Below are positions 1 to 39,612 of a stretch of 57,634 bases of DNA, piece after piece (the first letter of the stretch is position 1; each line of letters starts with the position of its first letter). This DNA is from Chloroflexota bacterium. GTDB lineage: Bacteria > Chloroflexota > Anaerolineae > DTLA01. The stretch covers positions 1 to 57,634 of the forward strand of contig JACIWU010000012.1 in NCBI GenBank assembly GCA_014360805.1, given 5' to 3'. The notes beneath the pieces were generated by a model. The model searched no databases. It worked only from the letters and a program-made list of their open reading frames with translations, and was not told the origin of the DNA. The position numbers and the translations under genes were made by a program.

Positions 1-278
1 GTCGCAGGTCTGGCAGGTATGGAAACTTGCCCCACGCAAAGCAAACTCGCGTTCCCTATTCGCGTGGATTGGCGTGATTCGCGGTTACAGGGGCAGGGGG
101 CCGGTATGGAGACCCGCCCTGCGCCCTTGCCCCGGAACCGAATTGCGTCTCCGCGCCGCGCATGCTTGACCCGCCTGCTTGTTATGCTATAATGCGTGGG
201 CGGGGGAACGTCCCTCCGCGCAAACGGCGGCTGCGAGCAATCACGCGACTCTGGCGTCGCTTTCGGGGAGGTTTGCGG
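1..278. other. Non-coding leader region upstream of the Asp-box protein
   Basis: I see no gene in this stretch. It holds low-complexity repeat-like sequence: a GGCAGGT/ACTTGCC-type segment near 10-32 that resembles the interspersed element at 23668-23717 and 49972-50020, and an ATTCGCGTGGATTGGCGTG-type segment near 58-85 of a kind also seen near 14185-14208. The promoter of the first gene lies at 166-193. Confidence 0.6.
166..193 (+). promoter_or_regulatory. Sigma70-like promoter of the Asp-box protein gene
   Basis: TTGACC (166-171), a 16-bp spacer and TATAAT (188-193). It lies downstream of the first possible ATG at 162, which argues that translation starts at 279. Confidence 0.8.
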
Positions 279-2357
279 ATGGCAAAGATACGTCTCCTGG
301 GGACGGCGGCCCTTCTGGTGGCGCTTCTGGGCGTCGGTTCGTCGGGCACGGCTGCGCTGAGCGGTGTGGGGGTGTGGACGACCACAGGCCCCTTCGGCGC
401 GCAGGTGCAGGCCCTGTGGGTCGCCCCGACCTTTGCGTCGGACGCGATTGTGCTGGCCGGAACGTGGGAGGCCGGCGTGTTCCGCTCCACCAACCGGGGC
501 CAGACGTGGGAACCCGGTAGCCTCACCGACCACTCCATCGTCGCGCTGGCCGCGCCGCCTAACTTCGCCGTGAGTTCCCTGGTCTTCGCCGGCGCCACGG
601 ACGGGTTCTTCATCTCCGCCAACAAGGGCCGCACGTGGAGCGCGGCCAACGCGGGCCTTGGCGCGGCCCCCCGAATCCAAGCCATTGCCGCGACGCCCAC
701 CTTCGCCGCCGACAACACCGTGTTCGTGGGAACCTTTGCCGCTGGCGTGTTCAAGTCCGTGAACGGCGGCATGGCCTGGGATCCATCCGGCGTCGGCCTG
801 ACCAGCCTCAGCGTCCAGGCGCTGGCCGTCTCCCCCGACTACGCCCAGGACCGCACGGTCTTCGCGGGCACCTTCTCGGGCGGTGTGTTCGTGTCGCGCG
901 ACGGTGGGGATTCGTGGGTCGCCGCCAACGTCGGCCTGGCGTTGGGCGAGGATGTGCGCGCGCTGGCCGTGTCCCCTGCCTTTGCGGACGACAGAACCCT
1001 CTTCGCCGGTACGTTCAACCATGGCGTCTTCCGCTCCACCGATGGCGGCGCCACGTGGCATGAGCGCAACGGCAATCTCCCCGCCGCCGGTCTTCAGGTG
1101 TTGGCCCTTGCCCTCTCGCCGAATTTCGCGGCAGACCAGACCCTGTTCCTCGGCTCTCCGGGCGGCGTGTTCAAGTCCACCGACGGCGGCGCCACCTGGG
1201 AGGACGCGAACCAGGGCCTCATCCCCTTCGTGCCCGTGCGCGCCATCGCGCTGTCGCCCAACTTCGCTGCCGATGGCCGCCTGTACGTCGGCACCGACAA
1301 AGGCGGCGTCTGGATGTCCACCGACGCAGGCGCAACTTGGCAGCCTGTGAACGAGTTACTCACCGGCCTGGGCACCGCAAACTTCGTGCAAGCCTCGCCC
1401 GAGTTCGCCACCGACCGACTGGTGTTCGTGGGAACCGCTGGTGGCGGCATCTACAAGTCCACGGACAGAGGCGTTACGTGGGAGCGGCTCATCAACACAC
1501 CCCCGACCCCCGCTGCCATGGCCATCTCGCCCGAATTCCGCGAGGACCGCGTAATCTATGCGGGGTCGCTCGGCAGCGGCGTGTACAAATCAACGGATGC
1601 GGGTCGCACGTGGGCACGCGTGAACTCGGGCCTCGGCTCGCTGCGGGTAAGCGCGCTCGCCATCTCGCCCTACTTCGGCGTGGACCGCACGCTTTACGCC
1701 GGCACCGATGGGGGCGGCGTGTACAAGACCACCGACGGCGGCAACCAGTGGAAGGCCGTGAATACCGGCCTGGAAAGCACCCGCATCATGGACCTCGCCA
1801 TATCGCCGTTCTACTTCAGCGACAGCACGGTATTTGCCGCCACGTATGACAACGGCGTGTTTGTTACGACGAACGCCGGCGGCTCGTGGAGCCCCGCCAA
1901 TCGGGGGCTTATCAGCCTGCGGGTGAACGCGCTCGCCATCTCGCCCCAGTTCAACACCGACAAGACGATGTACGCGGGCAGCAGTTGGGGCGGCATATTC
2001 CGCTCCACCGACGGTGGGCAGACCTGGGCGCAGTTCAACAACGGCCTCCCTGGAACCTACGTGGTAACCGTCTGCGCGCTGGAGATGTCCCCGACGTTCC
2101 TCACCGACCAGACCCTGTTTGCGGGCACGTGTTCCGACGGCGTGTACATGTCGCGCGACGCGGGCCAGTCGTGGACGGCCCTCAACGACGGCCTGTGGAA
2201 CGAGCGGGTGCGCTCGCTGTCCTTTGGCGCCACGGCGGAGGGATTCCTCTTCGCCGGCACCACGGGCGGCATGGCCTGGGCGCGGGAGTTGGGCGGCGCG
2301 GCGGAACGCACCCACTTCCTGTATCTGCCGCTCGCCTTCCGGGACTACGCGCCATAG
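279..2357 (+). CDS. Secreted Asp-box (BNR/YCF48-like) repeat protein, predicted beta-propeller
   Basis: A 692-residue exported protein. The start at 279 is chosen because GGGGAGG sits at a good distance upstream and the residues that follow form a typical signal peptide (about 1-27, KIR then a Leu/Ala-rich core). The body is about 13 full repeats of roughly 50 residues plus a partial one. Each has the pattern SPxFxxDxTLFAGT, then GGVFxSTDGGxTW, then NxGL, and the S-x-D-x-G-x-T-W part is the Asp-box seen in sialidases and VPS10 or YCF48-type propellers. No sialidase catalytic residues (RIP Arg, Tyr/Glu pair) are visible, so a binding or structural surface role is more likely than an enzyme. 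The C-terminus ends HFLYLPLAFRDYAP, a tail I associate with secreted Chloroflexota proteins. It is transcribed alone. Confidence 0.85.
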   Translation: MAKIRLLGTAALLVALLGVGSSGTAALSGVGVWTTTGPFGAQVQALWVAPTFASDAIVLAGTWEAGVFRSTNRGQTWEPGSLTDHSIVALAAPPNFAVSSLVFAGATDGFFISANKGRTWSAANAGLGAAPRIQAIAATPTFAADNTVFVGTFAAGVFKSVNGGMAWDPSGVGLTSLSVQALAVSPDYAQDRTVFAGTFSGGVFVSRDGGDSWVAANVGLALGEDVRALAVSPAFADDRTLFAGTFNHGVFRSTDGGATWHERNGNLPAAGLQVLALALSPNFAADQTLFLGSPGGVFKSTDGGATWEDANQGLIPFVPVRAIALSPNFAADGRLYVGTDKGGVWMSTDAGATWQPVNELLTGLGTANFVQASPEFATDRLVFVGTAGGGIYKSTDRGVTWERLINTPPTPAAMAISPEFREDRVIYAGSLGSGVYKSTDAGRTWARVNSGLGSLRVSALAISPYFGVDRTLYAGTDGGGVYKTTDGGNQWKAVNTGLESTRIMDLAISPFYFSDSTVFAATYDNGVFVTTNAGGSWSPANRGLISLRVNALAISPQFNTDKTMYAGSSWGGIFRSTDGGQTWAQFNNGLPGTYVVTVCALEMSPTFLTDQTLFAGTCSDGVYMSRDAGQSWTALNDGLWNERVRSLSFGATAEGFLFAGTTGGMAWARELGGAAERTHFLYLPLAFRDYAP

Positions 2358-4369: not shown

Positions 4370-5326
4370 CTAGCGCTTTGCCAACCCGTCCAGCCACGCG
4401 CGGATGTCGGGGGCGTCGGCGAAATCGGCGCCCAGCGTGATCGTCTTGCCGCTGTGGGACACGACTTCGCCCGCCTCGTTGATACGGAGAATCAACTGGC
4501 CGATCCACTCGCCCTGATACCCCGCCTGGACGATCACCGTGCCGTGGGTGGCGTCGCGGAACGGTTCGGGCATCAGGACGCCCGGATTGCCCCCCACAAT
4601 GGCGGCGATGCCAGGCACACTCGCGGCCAGTTCCCGGTCCTGTTGGAAGCCCAGGTTGGAGCAGACGATGAAGATGTCGGCCTGGCCCTGCAATTCCGAC
4701 ATCACCCGCCGCACGGCCTCTACCGGGTCGGCGACGAACACCGCCCCTCTGCCTTCGGGCGGGAGGAACGCCAGCACGTTCTTGCTGGTAACCCCGATGA
4801 CGGCGACGCGGTGCCCCGCCATCTCCTTGATGACGTAGGGGCGCGCGAACAATGTGCTGGCGCTGCCCACGTACACGTTGGCCGACAGCACGGCGAAAGC
4901 CGCCTCGCCCATGCGCGCCTTGAGCACCTCAAGCCCCCAGCGGAAGTCCTGGTCTCCCAGGGTCATGGCGTCGTACCCCAGGCGGTTCATGGCCTCAATC
5001 ATCACCGCGCCTTTGGTGGAGGATGTCAGCCACTGATCCGTGGTGAGCGCGTTGCCGGCGTCCAGCAGCAGGACGTGCGGGTACTGCTCCCGCATCTGAC
5101 GGATGAAGGTGGCCCGACGGGCCAACCCGCCCTTTGGCGGCCTTCAGCCGCACGGCTCGGTGAAGCCGCGAACGTCGTTGGTGTGCAGGATGACGAGGTC
5201 AAACGCCTGGGGCGAAGGGGCCGACGTGGGCGTGGGGGTGGGCGGCGTGGACTCGCCCCCGCAGCCCGACAGCACCAGGACTGCAACAGCAAAGAGCGCA
5301 AGGATGCGAAGTGGTGTTCTATGCAA
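4370..5326 (-). CDS. Predicted selenocysteine-containing lipoprotein with a degenerate metallophosphatase (5'-nucleotidase-like) fold; in-frame UGA at 5144-5146
   Basis: 318 residues if the UGA is read as selenocysteine (residue 61). The start is TTG at 5326, after AGGGGG with a 9-base spacing. A lipoprotein signal ends at LSGC (Cys22), followed by a Thr/Pro linker and then DLVILHTNDVRG, the first metallophosphatase motif. Next comes EPCG-Sec, then GGLARRATFIRQ in the same frame, so the two halves read as one protein. Compared with UshA-type enzymes, metal-ligand motifs are altered: TNDxHG is TNDVRG, the GD motif is AGN, GNHE is GDQD, the SHxG His is Asn, and GHxH is GGNPG. Hydrolase activity is therefore doubtful and a redox role for Cys-Gly-Sec is more likely (inference). 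The C-terminal 5'-nucleotidase domain is absent. Ordinary gene calling would give two fragments, 4370-5125 and an ORF ending at 5144. Confidence 0.8.
5107..5127 (-). promoter_or_regulatory. Candidate bSECIS hairpin for UGA at 5144-5146
   Basis: On the coding strand TGGCCC (5124-5119), loop GTC (5118-5116) and GGGCCA (5115-5110) form a perfect 6-bp stem, extended after one mismatch by pairs that include G-U. There are 25 bases between the UGA and the loop, and the loop starts with GU. Both fit the bacterial SECIS pattern as I know it (loop 16-37 bases from UGA, G in the first two loop positions). Confidence 0.7.
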
Positions 5327-5362: not shown

Positions 5363-5391
5363 ACTATACGCCAGCGGGGCGCGGATGTCAA
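5363..5391 (-). promoter_or_regulatory. Promoter of the predicted selenoprotein lipoprotein
   Basis: On the minus strand TTGACA (5391-5386), a 17-bp spacer and TATAGT (5368-5363). It is divergent from the regulator promoter at 5397-5425, so the two may share control. Confidence 0.85.
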
Positions 5392-5396
5392 CCTTG

Positions 5397-5425
5397 TTGA
5401 ATTCGCGCAACGATTGTGTTATAAT
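5397..5425 (+). promoter_or_regulatory. Promoter of the tandem-HTH regulator gene
   Basis: TTGAAT (5397-5402), a 17-bp spacer and TATAAT (5420-5425). Confidence 0.8.
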
Positions 5426-5480: not shown

Positions 5481-6155
5481 ATGCAAGCCGCTCCGGCACT
5501 CGCTATTCGGAACAAGATACTGGGGGCGCTCCTGAAGCACGCGCGCCTTCGCGCCGGCAGGCTTCCCGATGAATACGCGCAGGTGTTCGGCTGCACCGAG
5601 GCTGACATCCTCCGCTGGGAGAGCGGCGAGACGCCCATCACGCTGTCCCAACTGGAGGTCTGGGCTCACTTGAGCGGCGTGCCCCTCTCGTTCTTCTGGA
5701 ACGACCACGCGCTGCCCCAACGACGAGAGGTTGAGGAGCCGGTGCAGCCCATCATGCAGATTCGCCGCAAGATGGTGGGTGTCCTGCTGCGCCAGTCCCG
5801 CCTGATTGCGGCGCGCTCGCTGGAAGACCTGGCGCAGGAAATCGGCGTAACGCCGGAGTATCTGGAGGCGTGCGAGGCGGGCACGAAGGAACTGTCGGTG
5901 GCCCAATTGGAACTCGCCGCCGAGGCGTGTGGCGTGCCCATCGCCCAGTTCTTTGACGAGGACCTGTTCGCGCCCAGCGAGGAGGAACGCCGAATGCGCG
6001 ACCTGCACCGCCTGGACGAACTTCCGCCCGACCTGCGCGAGTTCGTGCTCAAGCCGTCCAACGCGCTGTACCTGAAGATCGCCAAGCAGATCAGCGCCCT
6101 TTCCGCCGACACCCTGCGCGAAATCGCCGAGACGCTGTTGGACATCACGCTGTGA
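5481..6155 (+). CDS. Transcriptional regulator with two tandem HTH (XRE/Cro-CI-like) domains
   Basis: 224 residues with two related helix-turn-helix units: about 9-75 (LKHARLRAGRLPDEYAQVFG, then ADILRWESGE and PITLSQLEVWA) and about 93-160 (RQSRLIAARSLEDLAQEIGV, then YLEACEAGTKELS and VAQLELAAEACGV). Each unit has the XRE layout in which the second helix is followed by a W/C-E-x-G turn. The C-terminal 60 residues (LHRLDELPPDLREFVLKPSN) are helical and probably mediate oligomerisation. The ATG at 5481 follows an AAAAGGGAGGGGG site. It is divergent from the selenoprotein lipoprotein gene and 22 bases upstream of the kinase-like gene, so it may regulate either. The target is unknown. Confidence 0.8.
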   Translation: MQAAPALAIRNKILGALLKHARLRAGRLPDEYAQVFGCTEADILRWESGETPITLSQLEVWAHLSGVPLSFFWNDHALPQRREVEEPVQPIMQIRRKMVGVLLRQSRLIAARSLEDLAQEIGVTPEYLEACEAGTKELSVAQLELAAEACGVPIAQFFDEDLFAPSEEERRMRDLHRLDELPPDLREFVLKPSNALYLKIAKQISALSADTLREIAETLLDITL

Positions 6156-7902: not shown

Positions 7903-9972
7903 CTACTTGGACTCTGCTGCCTTCGCCGCCTGGATGATCTGCTGCGCGATGTGCGAGGGGACTTCCTCGTAGTGCGAGAACTCCATGGTGTACACGCCGC
8001 GCCCCTGGGTGATGGAGCGCAGGGTGGTGGCATAGTGGAGCATCTCGGCCAGTGGGACCTGCGCCGTTACGACGCTGCGCCCGTGGGACTGTTCCATGCC
8101 CTGCACGCGCGCCCGTCGGGTGTTCAGGTCGCCCAGCACGTCGCCCATGTACTGCTCGGGAATGGTGATGACCACCTGCATGATGGGTTCCAGCAGCACC
8201 GGGCCGGCTTCCTCCATCGCCTTCTTGAACCCCAGGTTCGCGGCGATCTTGAACGCCATTTCCGACGAGTCCACCGGATGGTACGAGCCGTCGTAGAGCG
8301 CGACGCGCACGTCCACCACCGGATAGCCTGCCAGGATGCCCTTGGTCATTGTCTCGCGCACGCCCTTTTCCACCGCCGGGATGTACTGGCGCGGCACGGC
8401 CCCGCCGAACACCTCATCCACGAACTCAAATCCAGCGCCGCGCGGTAGGGGCTCCAGCCGCAGCCACACATCGCCAAACTGCCCGTGGCCGCCCGTCTGC
8501 TTCTTGTGGCGTCCCTGGGCGCTGGCCGTCCGGGTGATCGTTTCGCGGTAGGGAACCTTGGGCGTGCCCACGGTGATCTCCACGCCGAACTTCTGCTGGA
8601 GTTTGCGGGCCGCGATGTCCACATGGGACTCGCCCATGCCCGACAGAATCGTCTCGTTGGTTTCGGCGTCGCGGGTAACTTCCAGGGTGGGATCTTCTTC
8701 CACCAACCGCGTCAGAGCCGTGCTCATCTTGTCCAGGTCGGCCTTGGTCTTGGGCGAGATGGCCGCCGAGAAGATGGGCTTCGGGTAGGTTACCGGATCC
8801 AGCACCAGGGGCCGGCCCTTGTCGCACAGGGTGTCCCCGGTGATGGTGCTGCTCAACTTGGCCACGCCGCCGATTTCGCCCGCGCGCAACTGCTTGACGG
8901 GGGTCTGCTCCTTGCCGCGGATAAGGAACAACTGGCCGATGCGCTCCTCGCTCTGGGAGCGGGAGTTGAACGCGCGGGAGTCCGACTCCAGAATGCCTGA
9001 GTACACGCGCAGGTAGGTGAGTCGCCCCACGAAGGGGTCTGCCGTCGTTTTGAACGCCAGCGCGGCCAGAGGCCCGTTGTCGGTGGCTGCCAGGGTTTCG
9101 GTCTCGCCGGTGGCAGAGTTCTTGGCGAGAATCTCGCCCCCTTCGGCTGGCGAGGGCAGCAGGGCGACGATGGCGCTGAGCAGCGGCTGGATGCCGATGT
9201 TGGCCAGGGACGCGCCGCACAGGACGGGGACGATCTTGCCGCCCTTGACGCCCAACCGTAGCCCTCGGTAGATTTCGTCCTCGGTGAGTTCTTCGCCGTC
9301 CAGGTATTTCATGATGAGTTCGTCATCGCCCTCGGCGGCGACTTCTATCAGTTGCGTCCGCGCCTCTTCCACCTGGCTCGCCATGTCGGCGGGGATGGGG
9401 CTTTTTTCGGCCTTGGGGCCCAGATACGCCGTGCGCGACACCAGGTCCACCACGCCCTTGAAGGTGGCCTGGCTGCCGATGGGCAACTGCATGATGGCAG
9501 GCCGCACGCCGAAAATCTCGGCCAGGCTGGCGACCGCCTTCTGGAAGTCGGCGTTTTCGCGGTCCATCTTGTTGACGAAGACGAGGCGGGGCAACTTGTA
9601 GTCATTGGCGTGCTGCCAGACCAGTTCCGTGCCGACCTCCACGCCGGCGACGGCATCCAGCAGCACGACAGCCCCCTCCACGACCCGCACGGCGCTGCGC
9701 ACTTCGCCCACGAAGTCCGTGTACCCCGGGGTGTCCAGAATCGTGATGCGGCAATCCCCCCACTCCAGTGGAAGGATAGAGGTGTTGACCGAGATCTTCC
9801 TCCGCTGCTCTTCGGGGTCAAAGTCCGATGTGGTGTTCCCGTCGTCCACCTTACCGAGGCGCGAGATGGCACCTGCGTCAAAGAGCATGACCTCGGACAG
9901 TGTGGTCTTCCCGCTGTTGCCATGTCCCAGCAAGGCAACATTGCGCAACTTGCTGATGTCGTAACCGGCCAT
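7903..9972 (-). CDS. Elongation factor G paralogue (EF-G2/FusA2-like translational GTPase)
   Basis: 689 residues. The G domain shows GHGNSGKT (P-loop), DTPGYTDFVGEV (G3) and NKMD (G4) within the first 150 residues. It is followed by the EF-G domain II barrel, then domains III to V, including GETHVD-like GMGESHVD and, near the end, GDLNTRRARVQGME. Switch I (DGNTTSDFDPEEQRRKISV) and overall features resemble the second EF-G of Thermus and actinobacteria rather than the main FusA that sits with rpsL/rpsG/tuf, and no such genes are near. Its precise role (ribosome rescue, recycling or stress) is not settled. The start ATG has GAGGAGG upstream. It is not SelB: there is no SelB-type winged-helix tail, and EF-G domains IV and V are present. 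Confidence 0.88.
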   Translation of the reverse strand: MAGYDISKLRNVALLGHGNSGKTTLSEVMLFDAGAISRLGKVDDGNTTSDFDPEEQRRKISVNTSILPLEWGDCRITILDTPGYTDFVGEVRSAVRVVEGAVVLLDAVAGVEVGTELVWQHANDYKLPRLVFVNKMDRENADFQKAVASLAEIFGVRPAIMQLPIGSQATFKGVVDLVSRTAYLGPKAEKSPIPADMASQVEEARTQLIEVAAEGDDELIMKYLDGEELTEDEIYRGLRLGVKGGKIVPVLCGASLANIGIQPLLSAIVALLPSPAEGGEILAKNSATGETETLAATDNGPLAALAFKTTADPFVGRLTYLRVYSGILESDSRAFNSRSQSEERIGQLFLIRGKEQTPVKQLRAGEIGGVAKLSSTITGDTLCDKGRPLVLDPVTYPKPIFSAAISPKTKADLDKMSTALTRLVEEDPTLEVTRDAETNETILSGMGESHVDIAARKLQQKFGVEITVGTPKVPYRETITRTASAQGRHKKQTGGHGQFGDVWLRLEPLPRGAGFEFVDEVFGGAVPRQYIPAVEKGVRETMTKGILAGYPVVDVRVALYDGSYHPVDSSEMAFKIAANLGFKKAMEEAGPVLLEPIMQVVITIPEQYMGDVLGDLNTRRARVQGMEQSHGRSVVTAQVPLAEMLHYATTLRSITQGRGVYTMEFSHYEEVPSHIAQQIIQAAKAAESK

Positions 9973-38138: not shown

Positions 38139-38211
38139 TGTAGTGCTTTTCGGAACGGAGAGTGGTTTTTCGGACCGAACAACCGACTCACAAAGACGAT
38201 GGAGGTGGCCC

Positions 38212-39612
38212 ATGAGAACCCGGACCATTGCCTGGGTGGTGGGTCTGATCGGGATCACGGTGCTGATCCTGGCGGCCTGTGGAGCCGCGGCGACGCCTAC
38301 GCCGACCACAGCGCCCACAAAAGCACCGCCGACCAACACGCCGGTCCCACCACCTACCAACACGCCGGCGCCCACAGATACCCCGGTCCCCCCGACACCC
38401 ACGCCCATCCCGAGCGCCGATAACTGCGTGGCGTGTCATACCAGCGCCGAGACCCTCCAGAAACTCGCCGAAACCAAGAAGACCGGCTCCGCCGAAACCG
38501 AAGGGGAAGGCTGAGCGGGCGAGTTGCCTCCGTTGGAGGCATGGGAGAAGGTCTTCATCGGCAGCGACACCTTCCTCAAAGACGTCCATAACACGCCCAA
38601 CTGCATCGGCTGCCACGGCGGCCAGCCCGACACCGATGACAAGGCGTCGGCCCACCAGGGCGTCGTGCGCGACCCGTCCGCCGACAAGGGCGGCGTCTGC
38701 GCCAACTGCCACGGCGAAATCGCCAAGACCTCGGCGACTTCGCTGCACTACACCATCAACGGCTACTACACGATCCTGGGCCAGCGCGGGTTTGACTTCA
38801 ATGACCCGAAGAAGGCCGAAATCTTTGACCGGCACTGCACCAGTTGCCACGCTACCTGCGGCCAGTGCCACATCTCCCGGCCCACTTCAGCCGACGGCGG
38901 GCTCGTCAAGGAGCACCAGGTCAAGAGCATCGTCTCGCTCAGCGACACGTGCCTGGGCTGCCACGGCGGGCGCGTCGGCCCTGAATTCATGGGCAAGAAC
39001 CCAGGCATCCCTGGCGATGTCCACTGGACCAAGGGCGTCAACTGCTTCAAGTGCCACAACATGACCCAGTTCCACGGCGACGGCACCCAGTACGCCCATC
39101 GGTACGATGGCAAGCCGGCGCCCTCGTGCCTGGATTGCCACCCGGACGCGGCCCCCGGCAAGGGCCAGGTCATGCAGCACAACATCCACGGCGACAAACT
39201 GGACTGCCGCGTGTGCCACTCGGCAGGCGCGTACAAGTCCTGTTGGAACTGCCACGTGGGGCTGGACAAAGAAGGGCTGCCCTACCGCAAACTGGATCCG
39301 TCGGTTTTGACGTTCAAGATCGGCAAGAACCCGAACCCGACGCCCGACCGCCCATGGGAGTATGTCCTGGTGCGGCACATCCCGGTGCCCGCCGACATCT
39401 TCGGATACTACGGCGACAACATGCTCCCGAACTGGGCCTCGGTACCCACCTGGAAGTACGCCACCGTGCACAACATCCAGAAGATCACGCCGCAGAACAA
39501 GGATTGCAAGAACTGCCACGGCCATCCGGAACTGTTCCTGACGGAAAAGGACGTGGACCCGGCCGAACTGGAAGCCAACCGCGCCGTGATCGTTACGGAG
39601 ATCCCGAAGTAG
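38212..39612 (+). CDS. Predicted selenocysteine-containing 11-heme c-type cytochrome lipoprotein; in-frame UGA at 38512-38514
   Basis: 466 residues if UGA is read as selenocysteine (residue 101). ATG 38212 follows GGAGGTGG. The lipobox is ILAAC (Cys23), then a long Thr/Pro linker. Eleven CxxCH heme motifs occur: CVACH before the UGA and CIGCH, CANCH, CTSCH, CGQCH, CLGCH, CFKCH, CLDCH, CRVCH, CWNCH and CKNCH after it. Frame is kept across the UGA, GEG-Sec-AGELPPLEAWEKV, and no ribosome binding site or ATG lies just after it, so the two parts need each other: the first has the export signal, the second most hemes. A hairpin typical of bSECIS follows at once. An extracytoplasmic electron-transfer or reductase role is inferred, in line with the adjacent rhodanese and the divergent ccm operon. 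Gene callers would report two genes. Confidence 0.85.
38525..38541 (+). promoter_or_regulatory. Candidate bSECIS hairpin for UGA at 38512-38514
   Basis: TGCCTCC (38525-38531), loop GTT (38532-38534), GGAGGCA (38535-38541): a perfect 7-bp stem. Seventeen bases separate the UGA from the loop, and the loop starts with GU, the same as in the hairpin at 5107-5127. Confidence 0.75.

What the first reader, a model, noticed from the sequence alone, without database searches (positions are those of the whole stretch)
4370..5326. In-frame UGA in a Cys-Gly-X site: predicted new selenoprotein lipoprotein
Two reading frames, one ending at 5144 and one starting by 5125, are in the same frame and together form one lipoprotein, with the UGA at EPCG-UGA-RPPKGGLARRAT. 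I recall related metallophosphatase-fold proteins with Cys at this place (EPCGC...GGLARRAT). A hairpin with a GUC loop lies 25 bases after the UGA, and selA is the adjacent gene. The promoter and TTG start lie upstream of the first part only.
Basis: partly seen in the sequence, partly recalled or inferred. Interest (0 to 1): 0.9.

Follow-up and report, generated by a model that had tools for sequence, protein, structure and literature searches.

The report
Selenocysteine lipoprotein with erased phosphatase site
The apparent stop codon in this bacterial gene almost certainly codes for the rare amino acid selenocysteine; the protein belongs to a known but uncharacterised selenoprotein group, and its branch has lost the metal-binding site of its phosphatase ancestors, which suggests it now does redox chemistry instead.

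Summary
All the Sec-type homologues I read (about 50, one bacterial phylum) have TGA, never TAA or TAG, at this codon; one homologue has Cys. Purifying selection continues after the TGA. A SECIS hairpin follows (5124-5110). In relatives its stem covaries at synonymous third positions and its loop codon is CGG or CGT in 54 of 54, against about 41% of background Arg codons. The genome also has selA (adjacent), selB, selD (itself with an in-frame TGA) and tRNA-Sec. So UGA is selenocysteine.

It is not a wholly new family. It is the MPP-domain part of the 'UshA-like (seleno)protein' group (NF041198, CxU motif, reported 2008), but a short one-domain lipoprotein branch that scores 164 bits against a cut-off of 275.

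What looks new: the Sec members have lost most ligands of the dinuclear metal site that canonical relatives keep, and some sit beside Trx-CcdA (DsbD-like) or VKOR-Trx genes. Best reading: a pseudo-metallophosphatase turned into an extracytoplasmic selenol/thiol redox protein. Sec decoding is near certain (about 0.97); the redox function is inferred (about 0.6).

The parts
5363..5391 (-). sigma-70-type promoter TTGACA-17-TATAGT
   Evidence: 11 of 12 matches; 2 sites found in the region against 0.2 expected; consensus match only
5324..5326 (-). TTG start codon, preceded by a GA-rich ribosome-binding-like stretch (GAGGGGGAAA)
   Evidence: GTG at the same codon in L009 and L010 (translated there as V)
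5261..5326 (-). signal peptide with lipobox LSG-C (lipidated Cys codon 5263-5261)
   Evidence: read from the translation; LSGC also in the two genus relatives
4370..5326 (-). complete CDS of the selenoprotein, 318 aa with Sec61, TAG stop at 4372-4370
5144..5146 (-). in-frame UGA = selenocysteine, in motif P-C-G-U (Cys codon 5152-5150)
5110..5124 (-). SECIS hairpin UGGCCC-GUC-GGGCCA
   Evidence: covariation at synonymous third positions, loop-codon constraint in Sec members and not in non-Sec homologues
4433..5203 (-). metallophosphatase-like domain; ligand-equivalent positions D53 kept, R55 (for His), N94 (for Asp), D127-Q128 (for Asn-His), N226 (for His), N249 and G251 (for His-x-His); numbering of P0002
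2971..4359 (+). selA, L-seryl-tRNA(Sec) selenium transferase, convergent neighbour
   Evidence: TIGR00474, 577 bits; cut-off 268; adjacency conserved in G001 and G002

Best explanation
One gene on the minus strand (5326-4370) makes a 318-aa exported lipoprotein in which UGA 5146-5144 is read as selenocysteine by the SelA/SelB/SelD/tRNA-Sec system, directed by the hairpin at 5124-5110. The protein is a metallophosphatase-fold (UshA/CD73-type) domain that has lost most of the dinuclear metal ligands and the catalytic Asn-His, and carries a conserved Cys-Gly-Sec in the loop right after the first ligand strand. It most likely no longer hydrolyses phosphoesters but works as an extracytoplasmic selenol/thiol redox protein, reduced or oxidised by membrane Trx-CcdA (DsbD-like) or VKOR-Trx partners. 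Shown by sequence analysis: the open frame, conservation of the UGA, SECIS covariation, the machinery, and loss of ligands. Inferred: the redox function, the partners, and how the Cys-Sec pair works. Rough probabilities: Sec decoding 0.97, loss of the canonical dimetal site 0.9, redox role 0.6.
For: Same TGA codon in about 50 homologues from many genera, with one Cys homologue. Purifying selection after the UGA: dN 0.095 and dS 0.57 against L009, 0.098 and 0.46 against L010. SECIS hairpin: 98.9% of cells paired, 21 cells with changes on both sides against 5.3 in shuffles, covariation score 0.267 against 0.126 +/- 0.013 (0 of 500), at most 0.12 in slid controls. Loop Arg codon CGG/CGT 54 of 54 against 317 of 781 background Arg codons; non-Sec homologues with the same kind of peptide use CGC 9 of 22. 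selB, selD and tRNA-Sec in the genome over the curated cut-offs; selD itself has an in-frame TGA. Metal ligands replaced in the Sec members and kept in canonical relatives from the same class. One clade of 53 Sec + 1 Cys, support 100/98. Trx-CcdA (DsbD-like), Trx or VKOR-Trx neighbours in three branches of the PCGU tree and in 0 of 20 canonical loci.
Against: No protein or selenium measurement exists. The thiol-redox linkage is seen in a minority of loci (about 9 of 47), is not phylogenetically independent (one-sided Fisher about 0.03-0.05 by hand), and is absent at the window locus itself. A few Sec members keep one or two ligand-like residues (for example His at the H217 position), so some other metal use is not excluded. 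In 4 of 41 Sec-bearing MAGs no selB passed the threshold used (probably incompleteness). Fold energy against synonymous recoding is only weakly low on average (mean z -0.76). The AlphaFold model is poor (pLDDT 55), so the Sec environment was not modelled.
Confidence: 0.78

Rival explanations
1. The UGA is a real stop: a short lipoprotein and a separate downstream frame, or a decaying pseudogene.
For: The standard code reads it as a stop, and the downstream ORF has a TTG that could serve as a start.
Against: Only TGA, never TAA or TAG, at this codon in about 50 homologues; strong purifying selection after it; the Cys homologue reads straight through (L048); synonymous-site covariation of the hairpin; the downstream piece alone would lack the first strand and the export signal.
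Confidence: 0.02
2. Sequencing or assembly error.
For: The window is from a fragmented assembly (154 contigs).
Against: The same TGA is in two independent MAGs of the same genus (L009, L010) and in dozens of other genomes.
Confidence: 0.01
3. Sec is real, but the Cys-Gly-Sec loop is a metal or selenium ligand site (a metal-binding, transport or storage role) rather than a redox centre.
For: Sec and Cys are good soft-metal ligands; the second paralogue of this genus lies next to yqeB (selenium-dependent Mo-cofactor gene) and one copy in G105 is near XdhC and a molybdenum hydroxylase, so a selenium- or metal-handling role is conceivable.
Against: The neighbours in other branches are thiol-disulphide enzymes; C-x-U motifs are typical of selenol/thiol redox sites.
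Confidence: 0.2
4. Sec is real and the protein is still a hydrolase that uses the selenol as nucleophile or a remodelled single-metal site.
For: The fold is retained, D53 is nearly invariant, and the D84-equivalent is still Asp in a large minority of members.
Against: The catalytic Asn-His and the His-x-His are gone in the Sec members, and the DxH His in nearly all.
Confidence: 0.12

Closest known systems
UshA-like (seleno)protein, NCBIfam NF041198 (COG0737, CxU motif; PMC2398784, PMC9312934, PMC13188914)
   Same: P-C-G-U/C motif followed by GG-ARRA, MPP-type domain; the window protein aligns over profile 14-274 with 164 bits.
   Different: The window protein stops where the profile's second half (275-519) begins, is a lipoprotein of 318 aa and is under the 275-bit cut-off. 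None of 400 genomes of the phylum reaches the cut-off. Part of the missing half (401-484) resembles a multihaem cytochrome of the same genome.
UshA-like (seleno)protein family 2, NF049981 (CxxU)
   Same: Similar length and the same superfamily.
   Different: 53 bits against a cut-off of 140; CxU here, not CxxU, though L073 (CGVU) and L104 (CNTU) inside the same clade have CxxU.
5'-nucleotidases of the UshA/CD73 type
   Same: Homologous fold domain: profile A1 hits venom and human 5'-nucleotidase structures at E 1e-52 to 1e-47 and UshA at 1e-35.
   Different: No C-terminal substrate domain; dinuclear metal ligands and catalytic Asn-His lost.
SoxB thiosulphohydrolase (TIGR04486)
   Same: Same superfamily, 97 bits.
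   Different: Far below the 550-bit cut-off; metal ligands not kept.

Membership tests
Bacterial selenoprotein | In-frame UGA conserved with Cys/Sec at the same site in homologues | tested here: met
   TGA throughout the Sec members, Cys in L048
Bacterial selenoprotein | SECIS hairpin downstream of the UGA with G at the start of the apical loop | tested here: met
   bSECISearch itself was not available
Bacterial selenoprotein | selA, selB, selD and tRNA-Sec in the genome | tested here: met
Bacterial selenoprotein | Selenium in the protein | not testable with these tools
   needs mass spectrometry or 75Se labelling
UshA-like (seleno)protein NF041198 | Curated score cut-off 275 bits | tested here: not met
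   164.4 bits
UshA-like (seleno)protein NF041198 | CxU motif (P-C-G-U) | tested here: met
   swapping both Cys/Sec positions to Ser costs 13.9 bits with this model, and costs nothing with the UshA, SoxB and Nt5e models
UshA-like (seleno)protein NF041198 | Second half of the profile (275-519) | tested here: not met
   alignment ends at profile 274
UshA-like family 2, NF049981 | Cut-off 140 bits and CxxU motif | tested here: not met
   53 bits; motif is CxU
UshA/CD73-type 5'-nucleotidase | MPP-type domain homology | tested here: met
UshA/CD73-type 5'-nucleotidase | Dinuclear metal ligands (DxH, GD, GNH, H, HxH) | tested here: not met
   only D53 kept in the window protein; Sec members lack the NH and HxH pairs
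UshA/CD73-type 5'-nucleotidase | C-terminal substrate-binding domain | tested here: not met
   protein ends at residue 318
Bacterial lipoprotein | Signal peptide with lipobox and Cys+1 | tested here: met
   LVLSGC read by eye in the translation and in the genus relatives; no predictor was run

The most novel reading that the evidence does not exclude
A whole clade of exported proteins turned a dinuclear-metal phosphatase fold into a selenium-based redox module: the metal ligands were lost while a Cys-Gly-Sec appeared beside the old active site, coupled to Trx-CcdA or VKOR-Trx membrane partners. It would be a selenol oxidoreductase on a fold not known for redox chemistry.
Probability: 0.5. Interest if true: 0.68.

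Novelty: new variant of a known kind. Interest (0 to 1): 0.5.

Why it matters
The UshA-like selenoproteins have been listed since 2008 with no function, and the 2008 paper itself set them apart as one of the few common selenoprotein families without a conserved Cys-based redox motif. Loss of the metal site plus linkage to thiol-disulphide genes gives a concrete, testable answer. It also shows that reading the UGA as a stop splits or truncates these genes, and that the NCBIfam model's cut-off misses the short lipoprotein branch found here across one phylum.

Tried and rejected
Stop/pseudogene and assembly-error readings: rejected on conservation, dN/dS and independent MAGs. selA adjacency as functional evidence: rejected as genus-only. 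Co-occurrence of Sec-PCGU with selB across relatives: not informative, since selB is in 124 of 150 genomes anyway. Viral-contig scan: one canonical nucleotidase fragment only. Plasmid collection: only matches under 60% identity annotated as ordinary nucleotidases. Rfam scan: no family in the window. AlphaFold with the four permitted rows: too poor to use, so no fold search was run. Label 'Sec' for L124 in the tree is an artefact of my script (TGA upstream of its start).

Full report
Observation. The feature lies on the minus strand. Reading window 5332-4370 with TGA as a residue gives one uninterrupted frame with a single TGA at 5146-5144, inside HTNDVRGFTEPCG-U-RPPKGGLARRATF. From the TTG at 5326 the protein has 318 residues, Sec61, a signal peptide and lipobox (LVLSGC). 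A promoter-like TTGACA-17-TATAGT lies at 5391-5363 (2 sites found in the region, 0.2 expected). selA (TIGR00474, 577 bits against a cut-off of 268) ends 10 bp away in convergent orientation.

Is the UGA selenocysteine? (a) A protein search of 150 relatives found 99 genomes with matches. The matches closest to the window protein nearly all carry exactly one in-frame TGA. Re-reading about 50 of them showed it at the same codon, with motif PCGU in nearly all; one homologue (L048, genome G003) has Cys there (EPCACDP). Two independent MAGs of the same genus have the same TGA. (b) Between the window and these two, the part after the UGA is under purifying selection (dN 0.095, dS 0.57; dN 0.098, dS 0.46). 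(c) The hairpin UGGCCC-GUC-GGGCCA, with its loop 26 nt after the UGA, is found in the relatives. On 47 distinct sequences 98.9% of cells pair, 21 cells show changes on both sides (5.3 in shuffles), and the covariation score is 0.267 (shuffles 0.126 +/- 0.013, 0 of 500; slid controls at most 0.119). The two covarying pairs join third codon positions (C:G 31, U:A 14, G:C 1, U:G 1; and G:C, G:U, A:U, U:A). The middle loop base is the third base of an Arg codon: CGG or CGT in 54 of 54 Sec genes, although CGG+CGT make up 317 of 781 Arg codons in the same reading frames. Homologues without Sec but with a similar GG-x-A/S-RR peptide use CGC in 9 of 22 at that codon. Sequences are related, so these counts are not independent events. 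(d) The window's genome (G000) has tRNA-Sec (69.9 bits, cut-off 47), selB (343 bits, cut-off 242) and selD (373 bits, cut-off 125), and its selD has an in-frame TGA of its own. Together these leave little room for a stop-codon reading.

What the protein is. NCBIfam's best match is NF041198 'UshA-like (seleno)protein' (164.4 bits, cut-off 275, profile 14-274 of 519); NF049981 (family 2) gives 53 bits (cut-off 140). The group is known: PMC2398784 (2008) lists 'COG0737, UshA-like' with motif CxU, 76 Sec and 92 Cys sequences in the GOS data, and PMC13188914 (2026) lists NF041198 (CxU) and NF049981 (CxxU). The window protein is therefore a short, one-domain lipoprotein variant of a known selenoprotein kind. 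No genome in a 400-genome sample of the phylum reaches the NF041198 cut-off, so this branch is not named by that model. The missing half of the profile (positions 401-484) resembles a multihaem c-type cytochrome of the same genome, which suggests, without proving, that full-length members are fused to haem domains.

Metal site. A profile of the Sec proteins matches venom and human 5'-nucleotidases (E 1e-52 to 1e-47) and UshA (1e-35). Aligned with canonical relatives from the same class, the Sec proteins keep the first ligand Asp (one exception, L079) but lose the DxH His in all but one member (L073), and lose the Asn-His of GNHE and the His-x-His of GGHSH as pairs. The window has R55, D127-Q128, N226, N249 and G251 at these places and N94 for the Asp of LLDAGD. 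Canonical paralogues keep essentially the full set. The second copy of this genus keeps one His of the last pair. Sec members from other classes of the phylum show the same loss. A tree puts 53 Sec and 1 Cys protein on one side of a branch with support 100/98 and the canonical proteins on the other (L124 is mislabelled there). Residue swaps scored with NCBIfam models suggest that NF041198 as a whole also does not expect the DxH His or the Asn-His, while His-x-His is unclear. No paper found in the held library mentions this loss. Which residues are ligands rests on established knowledge of UshA and CD73, not on a structure solved or modelled here.

Neighbours. In the window's genus the second PCGU copy (G000:C20) lies between a membrane protein with three Trx-like CxxC domains followed by a CcdA/DsbD-like membrane part (L135:2616-4574; Pfam glutaredoxin/thioredoxin hits; the CcdA/DsbD assignment is by my reading of the sequence) and yqeB (TIGR03309, 384 bits, cut-off 220). 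Homologues of that Trx-CcdA protein are next to PCGU genes in G001, G002, G105, G081, G125 and G023; in G105, G081 and G125 a thioredoxin gene lies close upstream too. In G148 and G064 the neighbour is a Trx-VKOR fusion (PF07884, 86 bits). None of 20 canonical nucleotidase loci had such a neighbour. These loci fall on three branches of the PCGU tree, but most PCGU loci, the window included, lack such a neighbour within the DNA fetched, and the statistics are weak (one-sided p about 0.03-0.05 by hand, not corrected for relatedness).

How it most likely works. SelB with Sec-tRNA is recruited by the hairpin and inserts Sec61. The protein is exported and lipidated. The old metallophosphatase domain no longer holds its dinuclear centre, and the Cys59-Gly-Sec61 pair (numbering from the TTG start) sits in the loop that follows the first ligand strand, so the most economical function is a selenol/thiol redox site on a binding scaffold, exchanging electrons with membrane Trx-CcdA or VKOR-Trx proteins. 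Everything after 'exported' is inference.

Verdict. The Sec reading is near certain, the family is known, the branch and the erased metal site appear to be new, and the redox role is a good but unproven hypothesis.

Noticed in passing
L062 / L135 (G000:C20:about 38150-39040): A second PCGU selenoprotein in the same genome, on a distant branch of the tree, between a triple-Trx CcdA-like membrane protein and yqeB (selenium-dependent molybdenum cofactor gene).
   Followed up: partly
L089, L079, L059 (all from G125): Paralogues with unusual Sec sites: U-G-U (two TGA), tandem U-U, and A-T-U without the Cys. selB was not found over the threshold in this 88% complete MAG, so these could be extreme selenoproteins or copies decaying after loss of Sec decoding.
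   Followed up: no
L073 (CGVU) and L104 (CNTU): Members of the same clade with CxxU instead of CxU, possibly a bridge to NF049981 (UshA-like family 2).
   Followed up: no
L021 (G000:C22:24309-25241): selD of this genome is itself a Sec gene (CAGUAGK), so selenophosphate synthesis may itself need Sec.
   Followed up: partly
L136 (G105:C20:116000-128000): PCGU gene in a run with Trx-CcdA, thioredoxin, XdhC, a FeMo-co-binding-type protein and a molybdenum hydroxylase related to selenium-dependent xanthine dehydrogenase.
   Followed up: partly
window 5397-5425 +: Divergent promoter TTGAAT-17-TATAAT (with TG before the second hexamer) facing a double-HTH protein (5481-6155), back to back with the selenoprotein promoter.
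   Followed up: no
window 162-2357 +: 731-aa protein made of BNR/sortilin-like beta-propeller repeats.
   Followed up: no
window 7903-9972 -: EF-G-like protein of 689 aa; whether it is the main EF-G or an extra copy was not checked.
   Followed up: no
L026 (G000:C41): Multihaem c-type cytochrome matching the C-terminal part of the NF041198 profile, a hint that full-length UshA-like selenoproteins carry haem domains.
   Followed up: partly
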